From contig JAFOXE010000253.1 in assembly GCA_017425765.1 (NCBI GenBank), positions 1 to 12,649 on the forward strand: a stretch of DNA of 12,649 nt, in the 5' to 3' direction. The notes beneath the pieces were generated by a model that saw nothing but the letters and a program-made list of their open reading frames with translations, was not told the DNA's origin and ran no database searches. The stretch's first letter is position 1, and each line of letters begins with the position of its first letter. This document shows positions 10,743 to 12,231 of this stretch, piece by piece. Both the position numbers and the translations under genes were made by a program. Source of the stretch: Paraprevotella sp. (GTDB lineage Bacteria; Bacteroidota; Bacteroidia; Bacteroidales; Bacteroidaceae).

Positions 10743-10757
10743 GAGTAGGCTGAATAT

Positions 10758-10797
10758 AAAATAAGTCCCGAACTGTTGAGGTTCGGGACTTATTTTT
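10758..10797. terminator. Strong, probably bidirectional terminator
   Basis: AAAATAAGTCCCGAAC (10758-10773) and GTTCGGGACTTATTTT (10781-10796) are perfectly complementary across a 7-nt loop. The plus-strand T tract serves rprXY, starting 16 bases after the rprY stop. The A tract on the left arm gives a T tract on the minus strand, so the same hairpin can end the small membrane-protein gene, whose stop is at 10820. Confidence 0.93.
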
Positions 10798-10819
10798 ATT
10801 TTTTTATGTAGTAGGATGT

Positions 10820-10996
10820 TTAGTCTTGAATGCGCTTGTTCATGATGATGTGCGTAATCAGACCGGCAATCTGTAGGCCTAATGCACCACCGGTAAACCA
10901 ATTGTAATCAACTAAATCGGTAGCCTCGCTGATGAACAAGAGTATTACACCCAACAGAATCAAGATGATTCCTAAATTCTTTAATAAGGTATTCAT
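10820..10996 (-). CDS. Small two-helix membrane protein, function unknown
   Basis: A 58-codon frame on the minus strand runs ATG to TAA and encodes a protein beginning MNTLLKNLGIILILLGVILL. Two hydrophobic segments (about residues 6-23 and 36-52) are separated by a short acidic stretch, SEATDLVDYNWF, and the C-terminus is basic (NKRIQD), so a membrane hairpin is predicted. It is too short for ordinary ORF cut-offs. Support comes from its position: a -7-like box about 38 bases upstream, no gene on the other strand, and a shared terminator 23 bases after the stop. I recall similar small proteins ending in GLITH-like helices in Bacteroidales but cannot name a family. The MarR gene lies 106 bases upstream on the same strand, so readthrough from it is possible. 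Confidence 0.75.
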   Translation of the reverse strand: MNTLLKNLGIILILLGVILLFISEATDLVDYNWFTGGALGLQIAGLITHIIMNKRIQD

Positions 10997-11102: not shown

Positions 11103-11546
11103 TTAGTCTTTTGAGTTAGCAAAAACTTTCTTTAGCACCTCTTGGCTTATGCGCAGTTCTTCTGCACTGAGTCCTTTAAGGGCTTCTTTTAGTGTTTTAT
11201 GTGCTACGTAGCGCGATTTGCTTTCCAAATCTCGGCCGGTACGCGTTAGGTGAATTTGATTGATGCGGCGGTCGGTCTTGCTTGAAATTCTCACCACTAG
11301 ATTCTGGCGTTCCATGTTGTCGATGAGGCGTGTCATGCTCGGTTTGTCCTTGAAGGTGGCATTGCACAACTCCTGTTGTGTCACCCCGTCTTTTTGCCAC
11401 AAATAAATCAACACCGTCCATTGTTCCGGTGTGATGTCCATATTGTTTAGACGGAAGTTACGATAAAATTTACGGTTCAATGCCGCTGATACTTTACCAT
11501 TAAGAATGGCAAAAATCATCTGTATGTCAAATGTTACTTGTTCCAC
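11103..11546 (-). CDS. MarR-family winged-helix transcriptional regulator
   Basis: A 147-residue protein of typical MarR length, expected to act as a dimer on palindromic DNA and often to respond to a small ligand or oxidant. The N-terminal dimerisation helix (about 5-30) is followed by LTPEQW-like DITPEQWTVLIYL (37-49), the helix-turn-helix with VTQQELCNATFKDKPSMTRL (55-74), and the wing SSKTDRRINQIHLT (88-101), where Asp92-Arg93-Arg94 is the conserved DRR motif. A C-terminal helix completes the dimer interface. Cys61 lies in the HTH region; a redox role would be speculative. Translation starts at GTG 11546: an in-frame TAA lies two codons upstream and the next ATG (residue 10) would cut the first helix. 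The gene diverges from rpsF, and a six-unit palindrome array lies between the two promoters, so it is a candidate autoregulator and possible regulator of the ribosomal operon. Its real targets are unknown. Confidence 0.9.
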   Translation of the reverse strand: MEQVTFDIQMIFAILNGKVSAALNRKFYRNFRLNNMDITPEQWTVLIYLWQKDGVTQQELCNATFKDKPSMTRLIDNMERQNLVVRISSKTDRRINQIHLTRTGRDLESKSRYVAHKTLKEALKGLSAEELRISQEVLKKVFANSKD

Positions 11547-11575
11547 GTTTTAATACTATTGCTTAAACAACCGTG

Positions 11576-11583
11576 CAAAGATA
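11576..11583 (-). promoter_or_regulatory. Probable -7 promoter box of the MarR gene
   Basis: TATCTTTG on the minus strand is an exact TAnnTTTG match 29 bases before the GTG start, giving a leader of about 26 nt. A possible TTG lies 24 bp further upstream, a little too far for a consensus -33 element. Confidence 0.55.
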
Positions 11584-11647
11584 CAACCTTTTCTGATAAA
11601 ATGGTTTCAATAATCATGTTTTTTGCCTTTTTTCACGTTGTTTCACC

Positions 11648-11776
11648 TACATGCTCGTATATAGGGGCATTACATGCTCGTGTATAGAGGTGTTACATGA
11701 GCATGTAAATGGTGTGTACACGTACGTGTGGATACCCCTTACCCGAGCGTGTCTTTTGACTGTGTTTAAGCGTGTA
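11648..11776. repeat. Array of six 14-bp dyads at an exact 23-bp period
   Basis: Units start at 11648, 11671, 11694, 11717, 11740 and 11763. They read TACATGCTCGTATA, TACATGCTCGTGTA, TACATGAGCATGTA, TACACGTACGTGTG, TACCCGAGCGTGTC and TGTTTAAGCGTGTA. The shared pattern is TACAYG-NN-CRTGTA, with the first T, the C at position 9 and the T at positions 11 and 13 present in all six. The 9-bp spacers are not conserved beyond some similarity between the first three (TAGGGGCAT, TAGAGGTGT, AATGGTGTG). Unit 3 has perfect 6-bp arms and unit 4 contains a 12-bp perfect palindrome. The array fills the middle of the 343-base gap between the MarR gene and rpsF and lies outside both predicted transcripts. It may be an operator array or a diverged intergenic tandem repeat. 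Nothing else was recognised in that gap except the two promoters. Confidence 0.75.
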
Positions 11777-11812
11777 TATGAGGTGGTTTTGCTAAAAAAT
11801 AGGGGAAATGCT

Positions 11813-11842
11813 TTTGTGTTCTAGGAAAAATCACTACCTTTG
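11813..11842 (+). promoter_or_regulatory. Promoter of the rpsF-rpsR-rplI operon
   Basis: TTTG (11813-11816), 18 bp, then TACCTTTG (11835-11842) gives both consensus elements at nearly ideal spacing. It is the best promoter in the window, as expected for ribosomal protein genes. Transcription should begin near 11846, leaving a leader of about 44 nt that is AT-rich and has no Shine-Dalgarno sequence. The last palindrome unit ends 36 bases upstream of the -33 element. Confidence 0.75.
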
Positions 11843-11889
11843 CACCGCATTTTAGCAAAAGTATTAATTAATTTTTTATTTAACGTATT

Positions 11890-12231
11890 ATGAACCAATA
11901 CGAAACCGTTTTCATTTTAACTCCCGTTTTGTCTGATGATCAGATGAAGGAAGCGGTCAACAAGTTCAGAGGAATTCTCACCGACAACGGTGCTGAGATT
12001 CTTAACGAAGAGAACTGGGGCCTGAAAAAGTTGGCGTACGCCATTGAAAAAAAGTCTACCGGATTCTATGTAATGGTAGAGTTCAAGGCAGCGCCTGAGG
12101 TAATTAAGACTCTTGAGATTAATTATCGTCGTGATGAGAGAGTTCTTCGCTATCTTACTGTAAAGATGGAGAAGTACGCAGCAGAATATGCTGAGAAGAG
12201 AAGAAGTAACAAATCTAAAAAGGAGGACTAA
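11890..12231 (+). CDS. rpsF: 30S ribosomal protein bS6
   Basis: bS6 pairs with bS18 on the platform of the small ribosomal subunit. The 113-residue product starts with the family signature [18 protein letters not shown], continues with the RNA-binding core ([21 protein letters not shown], about 46-66, split here by eye) and ends in a basic tail, [10 protein letters not shown]. The length suits Bacteroidota bS6. It is the first gene of rpsF-rpsR-rplI, an order usual in this phylum with no ssb gene between rpsF and rpsR. No Shine-Dalgarno sequence precedes its ATG. Its last codons double as the Shine-Dalgarno of rpsR. Confidence 0.97.
12217..12226 (+). promoter_or_regulatory. Strong Shine-Dalgarno sequence for rpsR
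   Basis: AAAAAGGAGG contains eight contiguous bases (AAAGGAGG) complementary to the usual 16S rRNA tail. It lies inside the last codons of rpsF, 11 bases before the rpsR ATG. Other genes in the window lack such a match, and Bacteroidota ribosomes normally do not use one. Confidence 0.8.

What the first reader, a model, noticed from the sequence alone, without database searches (positions are those of the whole stretch)
11648..11776. Six diverged palindromes in exact 23-bp register between a MarR gene and the rpsF operon
Units with the pattern TACAYG-NN-CRTGTA start every 23 bp without a single indel, although both the units and the 9-bp spacers have diverged. Period kept while sequence drifts suggests that spacing or repeated protein binding is under selection, or that an old tandem duplication is decaying by substitution only. 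A 23-bp step is about 2.2 helical turns, so successive sites would wind around the helix, which could suit a spreading or nucleoprotein-forming protein. The best candidate ligand is the adjacent MarR regulator, whose family binds dyads of this size. The array is upstream of both promoters, so it would more easily affect supercoiling, looping or activation than block polymerase directly.
Basis: partly seen in the sequence, partly recalled or inferred. Interest (0 to 1): 0.7.

Follow-up and report, generated by a model that had tools for sequence, protein, structure and literature searches.

The report
Dispersed four-palindrome repeat, not MarR operator
The row of small palindromes is one copy of a repeat that this bacterium carries at scores of places between its genes, so it is not a private switch for its neighbour, and some distant relatives carry repeats with the same spacing but different letters.

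Summary
The array is real: five good dyads at 11648, 11671, 11694, 11717 and 11740, exactly 23 bp apart, plus a half-site at 11763. It is not a private MarR operator. Two units in this register occur 138 times in this 1.71-Mb assembly, the reversed control never; I estimate 90-127 elements. Of 17 other genomes held for the genus, 16 have no match and one has a single non-array match, though 12 keep MarR beside rpsF.

The element is AAAA-P1-s1-P2-s2-P3-s3-P4-TTTT: four 14-bp palindromes, 8-9-bp spacers. P1 covaries with P2 and P3 with P4; 1:4 and 2:3 do not, without G-U bias. No Y1 transposase, GTAG/CGTC foot or target duplication was found.

The geometry recurs with other letters: G200 has 12 places, 9 with exactly four units; G254, G334, G406 and G047 hold kindred arrays, and three G254 arrays recur at the same places in G334. 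I read it as a REP/MITE-like repeat conserved in geometry; a genome-wide binding protein is the main rival.

The parts
11648..11776 (.). the whole copy of the dispersed palindrome repeat (five good units and a half unit, 23-bp register)
   Evidence: DNA fold z -4.7
11648..11661 (.). unit P0 TACATGCTCGTATA (extra outer unit; 22 of 61 elements have one)
   Evidence: 1 mismatch; outer units counted
11671..11684 (.). unit P1 TACATGCTCGTGTA
   Evidence: 0 mismatches
11694..11707 (.). unit P2 TACATGAGCATGTA, 13 of 14 complementary to P1 (hairpin 11671-11707, 9-nt loop)
11717..11730 (.). unit P3 TACACGTACGTGTG
   Evidence: 1 mismatch
11740..11753 (.). unit P4 TACCCGAGCGTGTC; in the DNA fold it pairs with P0 and closes a cloverleaf-like shape; only 9 of 14 complementary to P3
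   Evidence: 2 mismatches; fold
11754..11757 (.). T tract that ends the core element (the A tract on the other side is missing here; the extra unit P0 lies there)
   Evidence: at each of the four positions next to the core, 76-89% of the 124 element ends have A (T on the other strand)
11763..11776 (.). degenerate sixth unit, half-site GCGTGTA only
   Evidence: 4 mismatches, 1 of 6 self-pairs
11103..11546 (-). MarR-family regulator gene (neighbour; not shown to belong to the array)
   Evidence: PF12802 E 3.5e-14; orthologue beside rpsF in 12 sister genomes without the array
11835..11849 (+). TACCTTTGCACCGCA, conserved promoter-like box of rpsF, downstream of the array and intact
   Evidence: TTTGCACCGCA is in all 14 sister gaps printed; that TAnnTTTG is the Bacteroidetes -7 box is recalled
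11890..12231 (+). rpsF (ribosomal protein S6), neighbour
   Evidence: PF01250 E 3.3e-32

Best explanation
SHOWN: The array is one copy of a high-copy, species-restricted, intergenic palindromic repeat. The standard element is four 14-bp palindromes in a 22/23-bp register between an A tract and a T tract; the window copy has an extra outer unit. Neighbouring units tend to be inverted copies of each other in pairs (1 with 2, 3 with 4), so the element can form two DNA hairpins or cruciform arms in a row. Elements of the same geometry but other letters exist in other genomes of the order. INFERRED: It works like a REP/BIME or MITE, i.e. a non-coding element copied around the genome by a trans-acting enzyme that reads the palindrome pairs and their two-turn spacing, landing where it does least harm (between genes, more often on the 3' side). 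At this locus it sits between the two promoters, as one insertion among scores, and has no special tie to MarR. Any effect on marR or rpsF would be local and incidental. Likelihoods: dispersed repeat and not a local MarR operator 0.95; hairpin pairing at DNA level 0.7; spread by transposition-like copying 0.5.
For: Dispersal: 115 single-unit matches (<=1 mismatch) against 19 for the reversed control; 54 against 0 (<=1) and 138 against 0 (<=2) for two units in register. Restriction: of 17 other genomes of the genus one has one match (G014, no array) and 16 none. Empty neighbour locus: 12 sister gaps with a clear MarR ORF have median 224 bp; own gap 343 bp, minus 129 is 214. Architecture: 62 elements with score >=52 of 69 candidates (only steps 22 and 23 were allowed); geometries (23,23,23) 26, (22,22,23) 9, (23,22,23) 8, (23,22,22) 8, (22,23,23) 5, (23,23,22) 5, (22,22,22) 1. 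Spacers share some sequence between elements (mean best-orientation identity 0.42 against 0.33 shuffled; 58 of 131 hold CCC or GGG), as copies would. Pairing: P1:P2 9.24 of 14 against 8.10, P3:P4 9.40 against 8.20, 0 of 2000 shuffles each; covariation score 0.291 against 0.188, 0 of 500; 21 of 58 elements have a >=12/14 helix 1:2 or 3:4, 2 of 58 a 1:4 or 2:3 helix. DNA, not RNA: G-U 127 against A-C 111 cells. Placement: of 46 elements with both neighbours read, 18 convergent, 21 tandem, 7 divergent. Other species: G200 with 9 of 12 places exactly 4 x 23 bp and 0 matches in same-genus G019; G047 with 12 full and 2 cut copies of a four-palindrome element, the other full copies 91-97% identical to the query copy.
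Against: No mobilizer found: PF01797 (Y1) absent from G000 and G047, though these are 71% and 61% complete; other transposase families were not sought. No target-site duplication: 0 of 62 at 3 bp or more, 4 of 62 at 2 bp (the A/T tracts were stripped first, so a duplication made of A would be missed). No near-identical copies in G000 (best pair 78%), so present-day mobility is not shown there. In G254 and G334 three arrays sit at the same places, with units 49 of 56 identical in the two pairs counted and spacers 9 of 27 and 20 of 27; that is long persistence with units better kept than spacers, which a binding site predicts. Single-unit self-pairing is as strong as the pairing between units and letters are constrained (A2 98%, T13 96%, core mostly GCTC/GTAC/GAGC). 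A structure with P1:P3 plus self-hairpins also exceeds its shuffles (0.234 against 0.181), though P1:P3 alone does not (z 0.1). Pairing between units is clear only in a subset and was not significant in the 12 G200 places (z up to 1.6).
Confidence: 0.52

Rival explanations
1. The units are binding sites of one genome-wide DNA-binding protein (a nucleoid or chromosome-organizing protein, or a global regulator). Dimers bind each 14-bp dyad and about four of them cooperate at two-turn spacing; the sites multiplied because they serve the cell. (Odds raised from 0.25.)
For: Strong letter constraint in half-sites; extra units at 22/23 bp in 22 of 61 elements against 0-3 at control offsets. In G254 and G334 (same genus) three arrays lie at the same places; units are 49 of 56 identical in the two pairs counted, spacers 9 of 27 (flanks 75 of 83 and 19 of 20) and 20 of 27; in the third pair the arrays differ by one whole 23-bp step. 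In G200, 9 of 12 places lie within 600 kb of a 4.1-Mb genome (4 of 20000 random placements as tight), which recalls sites of a chromosome domain.
Against: Pairwise covariation 1:2 and 3:4 but not 2:3 or 1:4 is not needed for binding; no preference for promoters (7 divergent of 46); letters differ between species while geometry stays; no match in 16 of 17 genomes of the genus. In G200 the replication position of the cluster stayed unresolved.
Confidence: 0.32
2. Palindromicity is kept up by mutation, not by selection: template switching within and between hairpins rewrites imperfect arms into perfect ones, so that arrays stay palindromic while letters drift. (Not exclusive of the other readings.)
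For: Exact inverted pairs with unusual letters in single loci, e.g. in L124, L122 and L121 and in the two-unit place L275 of G200 (14 of 14; L271 13 of 14); in G254 several arrays have their own letters; a spacer set far more diverged than its flanks (9 of 27 against 75 of 83).
Against: Does not explain dispersal to scores of loci with A/T-tract ends, the four-unit count, or why units 2 and 3 do not covary.
Confidence: 0.15
3. Bidirectional transcription terminators or RNA hairpins: end unit plus T tract on one strand, A tract plus unit on the other.
For: A/T tracts at the ends; more convergent than divergent places, 18 to 7.
Against: No G-U over A-C excess in the 1:2 + 3:4 helices; divergent promoter regions including this window also hold elements; no terminator-like site found in window 11500-11900; in 18 sources no Rfam match that overlaps an element reaches its gathering score; no TTTT directly after the last unit in the 12 G200 places.
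Confidence: 0.06
4. Operator array of the adjacent MarR regulator.
For: Adjacency; the dyad size suits the family (recalled).
Against: An estimated 90-127 elements in the assembly; MarR orthologues beside rpsF in 12 genomes whose search shows no array.
Confidence: 0.03

Closest known systems
REP / BIME / REPIN (repetitive extragenic palindromes; REP doublets forming hairpins) with RAYT transposases
   Same: High copy, extragenic, palindromic units, inverted neighbouring units able to form hairpins in single-stranded DNA (PMC3116915 and PMC3733652, passages read).
   Different: No GTAG/GTGG or CGTC within 6 nt outside the element ends (0 of 62; GTAG does occur inside elements at unit-spacer junctions, which I did not count); no Y1 transposase found in the genome; 14-bp units at a 22/23-bp step; four units rather than doublets with 71 or 110 bp between the two REPs.
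BrickBuilt MITE of Porphyromonas gingivalis
   Same: 23-nt tandem repeat, intergenic, dispersed, nearly species-restricted, predicted stem-loops (PMC4596501: abstract, sections 5 and 8, part 1 of section 7 read); same order probably (recalled).
   Different: BrickBuilt repeats up to 22.8 times without spacers, inside leader and tail with IS5-type inverted ends GAGACC/GGTCTC; those ends were not found here (0 of 62 within 350 bp), and the unit number is about four. Its 23-nt letters were not in the text read, so the unit itself could not be compared.
Atypical secondary structures beside TnpA(Y1) subclass 2.6 of Bacteroidetes
   Same: Bacteroidetes, non-GTAG palindromic structures with copies elsewhere in the genome (PMC6006769, section 25 and passages read).
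   Different: Three Y1-like genes among the fetched sequence (G010 L159, G254 L209 and the weak hit L218) are flanked by other repeats; no 22/23-bp palindrome array was seen within 900 bp of them.
Prokaryotic satellites
   Same: Tandem units (PMC6749651, abstract and passages read).
   Different: That survey reports families of transposed satellites only in Leptospira interrogans and Methanocella conradii; here units are diverged, palindromic and about four in number.
Tandem phage operators
   Same: Two 23-bp-spaced dyads in viral contigs L051 and L050.
   Different: Two units; they look like repressor regions (inference) and not like a dispersed repeat. L050 holds another single such dyad about 480 bp away.

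Membership tests
REP/REPIN | extragenic, high copy | tested here: met
REP/REPIN | GTAG/GTGG or CGTC tag at the foot | tested here: not met
   0 of 62 within 6 nt outside either element end; feet of inner hairpins not tested
REP/REPIN | cognate RAYT (Y1) transposase in the genome | tested here: inconclusive
   none in G000, but the assembly is 71% complete
REP/REPIN | inverted neighbouring units forming a hairpin | tested here: met
   units 1:2 and 3:4; near-perfect in 21 of 58
MITE | terminal inverted repeats | tested here: inconclusive
   AAAA-CACAC ... GTGTG-TTTT ends, but every unit is itself a palindrome
MITE | target-site duplication | tested here: not met
   0 of 62 at 3 bp or longer after stripping the A/T tracts
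MITE | autonomous partner with the same ends | tested here: inconclusive
   no such partner evident among the 40 matches of the G047 element in its 61%-complete genome; not tested for G000
BrickBuilt | 23-nt tandem repeat | tested here: met
BrickBuilt | IS5-type ends GAGACC/GGTCTC | tested here: not met
   0 of 62
MarR operator | confined to the MarR locus or a small regulon | tested here: not met
MarR operator | binding by the MarR protein | not testable with these tools
   needs footprinting
CRISPR array | identical repeats with unique spacers | tested here: not met
   0 of 62 elements have four identical units

The most novel reading that the evidence does not exclude
A class of Bacteroidales DNA elements is defined by geometry instead of sequence: about four 14-bp palindromes at 21-23-bp steps, arranged as two tandem hairpins. 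Each carrier species has its own letters (ACAYGNNCRTGT here, ACATSSSSATGT in G200, AAGATGTACATCTT in G406), and some genomes have several letter sets. A protein or enzyme that reads shape and two-turn spacing, or a fast co-evolving binder-mobilizer, maintains and spreads them, either as selfish DNA or as chromosome-domain markers.
Probability: 0.35. Interest if true: 0.82.

Novelty: new variant of a known kind. Interest (0 to 1): 0.58.

Why it matters
REP-like repeats are known by their tags and transposases. This family has neither, as far as could be tested, yet keeps a two-turn register and pairwise inverted units while its letters drift, and the same geometry turns up with other letters elsewhere in the order. 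If the geometry is the conserved trait, sequence-similarity searches miss the whole class, and it offers a direct way to ask what reads palindrome spacing in Bacteroidales: a mobilizer, a chromosome organizer or a mutational process. It also warns against naming an intergenic dyad array an operator of the next gene before the genome has been searched.

Tried and rejected
MarR operator: rejected as a local operator. BrickBuilt identity: the 23-nt period made it a lead, but the IS5-type ends were not found. REPIN/RAYT: no tag at the ends, no Y1 gene found; I then looked at Y1-like genes in fetched relatives and saw other repeats beside them. RNA element: no G-U excess in the 1:2 + 3:4 structure (for self-hairpins G-U 94 against A-C 72, and the per-element spread was above chance, p 0.014); Rfam matches that overlap elements (L121 and L162 miRNA families, L017 sau-5971, L162 tsr25) lie far below gathering scores. 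P0:P5 pairing as a closing stem: not above shuffles. Longer stems beyond 14 bp and spacer pairing: no consistent signal. Virus or plasmid origin: no plasmid match; two viral-contig matches look like phage operators; no viral match for an 18-base piece of the G047 element.

Limits of the counts. The 62 elements come from places picked by the pattern and BLAST searches and are not a random sample; 7 of 69 candidates scoring 44-48 were dropped as chance-like, and only steps 22 and 23 were allowed (one search allowed 24 too and fitted it in a few elements). For alignment A1 I left out 4 of the 62 by eye because of irregular ends (L102, L111, L114, L099). In one search one of five measures (pairs with a change on both sides) was reached by 32 of 500 shuffles; two measures (144 and 413 of 500) did not exceed shuffles. 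The order-wide model search scored only the ten best candidates per genome with stricter filters, and it missed G047, which does hold such an element, so 7 of 393 (own included) is a floor; of its hits G304 looks like chance and G354 is a 21-bp tandem repeat. Letter-free survey: no three-unit hit (>=16 of 18 pairs, steps 20-24) in the eight added genomes (62-100 kb each) and two in G016 (400 kb) that look incidental; some of the seven G254 clusters may be pieces of one long array. The reversed control pattern itself had 8 matches in G016 and 1 in G002; two such places, with 3 mismatches, in the fetched G016 stretches are a tandem repeat of other letters. The G200 pattern also matches 3 places of G000, which are elements of its own family. 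G200 unit-unit covariation is not significant with 12 places. Literature: searches of the held PMC library, as far as their listings show (7-15 papers each, 0), gave no description of such an element; most subscription papers and bioRxiv preprints are not held.

Full report
OBSERVATION. Against TACAYGNNCRTGTA the six have 1, 0, 0, 1, 2 and 4 mismatches, so there are five good units and one half-site; all spacers are 9 bp. The array lies in the 343-bp gap between a MarR-family gene (PF12802, E 3.5e-14) and rpsF (PF01250, E 3.3e-32). Folded as single-stranded DNA the 129 nt give -23.9 kcal/mol against -12.7 +/- 2.4 for shuffles: P1 and P2 form a hairpin, P0 pairs with P4, and P3 folds on itself.

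GENOME-WIDE. The window is a whole contig of a 1.71-Mb, 257-contig, 71%-complete assembly. The single unit (<=1 mismatch) occurs 115 times against 19 for the reversed control. Two units in register occur 54 times (<=1 mismatch, control 0) and 138 times (<=2 mismatches, control 0). BLAST with the array gives 61 matches at E <= 10, itself included. From detection rates on collected elements I estimate about 90 (two-unit pattern) to 127 (end pattern) elements in the assembly.

RELATIVES. Of the 17 other genomes held for the genus, 16 have no two-unit match and G014 has one that is no array. S6 was found in 16 of 18 genomes, own included. Twelve sister gaps with a clear MarR ORF measure 206-343 bp (median 224); the own gap minus 129 bp is 214 bp. 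The TTTGCACCGCA box before rpsF is in all 14 sister gaps printed. This fits an insertion between two promoters that were left intact.

ANATOMY. Sixty-two elements (of 69 candidates; seven weak ones dropped; steps of 22 and 23 only were allowed) share the plan AAAA-P1-s1-P2-s2-P3-s3-P4-TTTT with 14-bp P and 8- or 9-bp s. With no step imposed, 23 bp is the recurrent spacing of units in the fetched loci. At each of the four positions outside the core 76-89% of the 124 ends have A; no target duplication of 3 bp or more was seen in 62. A further outer unit at 22/23 bp occurs in 22 of 61, against 0-3 at control offsets; the window copy is of that kind. Unit letters are constrained (A2 98%, T13 96%; core GCTC, GTAC or GAGC in 169 of 248). 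The most similar pair of the same or mirrored geometry is 78% identical, median 54%. Units average 0.63 identity between elements (shuffled letters 0.32) and 9-nt spacers 0.42 (shuffled 0.33), best orientation.

PAIRING. Within elements P1 is more complementary to P2 (9.24 of 14 against 8.10) and P3 to P4 (9.40 against 8.20) than between shuffled elements (0 of 2000 each); 1:4 and 2:3 are not. On alignment A1 (58 of the 62) the 1:2 + 3:4 structure has covariation 0.291 against 0.188 (0 of 500 shuffles). Single-unit self-pairing has 0.269 against 0.180, a 1:3 structure with self-hairpins 0.234 against 0.181, and 1:4 + 2:3 falls below its shuffles. Near-perfect (>=12/14) 1:2 or 3:4 helices occur in 21 of 58 elements, 1:4 or 2:3 in 2 of 58. 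G-U cells (127) hardly exceed A-C cells (111), so the constraint looks like DNA. Control (a) of the counting tool does not remove relatedness; the contrast between the two pairings, which share relatedness, is the better argument.

PLACEMENT. Of 62 elements 46 had both neighbours read: 18 convergent, 21 tandem, 7 divergent; the median distance is 71 bp to a gene end and 149 bp to a gene start. Seven lie in frames of 90 codons or more that I take for over-extended or spurious ORFs, and nine lie near contig or locus ends.

OTHER SPECIES. A covariance model over 393 genomes of the order hit 7, own included. Four of the other six (G200, G254, G334, G406) show four palindromes at 22 or 23 bp with other letters; G304 looks like chance and G354 is a 21-bp tandem repeat. 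G200 (same family, other genus, 99% complete) has AACATSSSSATGTT: 31 two-unit matches, control 0, and 0 in same-genus G019. Of 12 places 9 have exactly four units at 23 bp, one three and two two; the neighbouring steps have 6 or more mismatches. Nine of the 12 lie within 600 kb, as tight as 4 of 20000 random placements. The cumulative skew minimum of the sampled contig lies there, but gene strands do not tell origin from terminus and dnaA is on another contig. G406 has AAGATGTACATCTT at 22 bp with a compensated pair. G047 has a 14-copy element (12 full, 2 cut) of four palindromes at 23/22/23 with ends TTAAGCTTA. A letter-free scan of 400 kb each finds four consecutive palindromes (>=20 of 24 pairs) only at steps 21-23 of 15-32: 7 clusters in G254, 2 in G200, 0 in G016. 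With eight more genomes (62-100 kb each) and threshold 19, steps 21-23 hold 12 clusters and the other 19 steps together 4; no three-unit hit at steps 20-24 came from the eight added genomes. So the class is patchy.

PERSISTENCE. The three G254 places found with the model have counterparts in G334 of the same genus, by flanking identity of 86-92%. In two pairs units are 49 of 56 identical each, spacers 9 of 27 (flanks 75 of 83 and 19 of 20) and 20 of 27. In the third the arrays differ by one whole 23-bp step. So in that genus arrays outlast speciation and units are better kept than spacers. This favours a function or upkeep of the units, and I raised rival 1 for it. No such pair could be had for the window's own family.

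KNOWN KINDS. It works like REP/REPIN DNA (inverted palindromic doublets; PMC3116915, passages), but tags are absent at the ends (0 of 62) and no Y1 transposase was found in an incomplete genome. Bacteroidetes Y1 subclass 2.6 genes are said to be flanked by atypical structures (PMC6006769, section 25); the three Y1-like genes seen here are flanked by other repeats. BrickBuilt shares period and dispersal, but not the IS5-type ends. No Rfam match that overlaps an element reaches its gathering score in 18 sources.

MECHANISM. Shown: dispersal, restriction within the genus, fixed geometry, pairwise inverted units. Inferred: copying by a trans-acting enzyme that reads paired palindromes at two-turn spacing. 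Open: binder or mobilizer, and whether it benefits the cell. That the organism belongs to Bacteroidota is inferred from a Bacteroidetes FopS sRNA above its gathering score in L012 and from the two protein relatives; that the order is Bacteroidales is a guess from these.

Noticed in passing
G047 loci L129-L142: A young MITE-like element of about 100 bp with palindromic ends TTAAGCTTA, 12 full and 2 cut copies, and weakly shared sequence upstream (such as TTGTCGTGAGAG) in several copies.
   Followed up: partly
G254 L164/G334 L174, L170/L168, L171/L161: Palindrome arrays at the same places in two genomes of one genus; in one pair the spacers are far more diverged than the flanks, in another a whole 23-bp step is gained or lost.
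   Followed up: partly
G254: L215 8562 and 17998, L219 14341, L206 1819: Arrays of 21- or 23-bp palindromic units, some long, with their own letters at each of these loci.
   Followed up: partly
G200 contig C1, 715-1316 kb: Nine of twelve palindrome quartets crowd into 600 kb around the cumulative GC-skew minimum of the sampled contig.
   Followed up: partly
G254 L209 8949-9848: A Y1 transposase gene follows about three tandem copies of a roughly 303-bp repeat.
   Followed up: no
G354 L166: 21-bp tandem repeat TAGACGACCATCTATTACGAT, palindromic units, several copies in a row.
   Followed up: no
L012 1653-1724 and L010 1668-1885: FopS sRNA and cobalamin riboswitch matches next to elements of this family.
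   Followed up: no
window 10757-10833 (-): Threonine-leader-like Rfam match below its gathering score (41.5 against 55 bits), just downstream of the response-regulator gene.
   Followed up: no
viral contigs L050 5661 and L051 155: Pairs of 23-bp-spaced dyads that look like phage operators.
   Followed up: no
G200, six places: Six equally scoring copies of a 261-aa DnaA-domain ATPase frame, probably an insertion-sequence helper (the guess is recalled knowledge).
   Followed up: no
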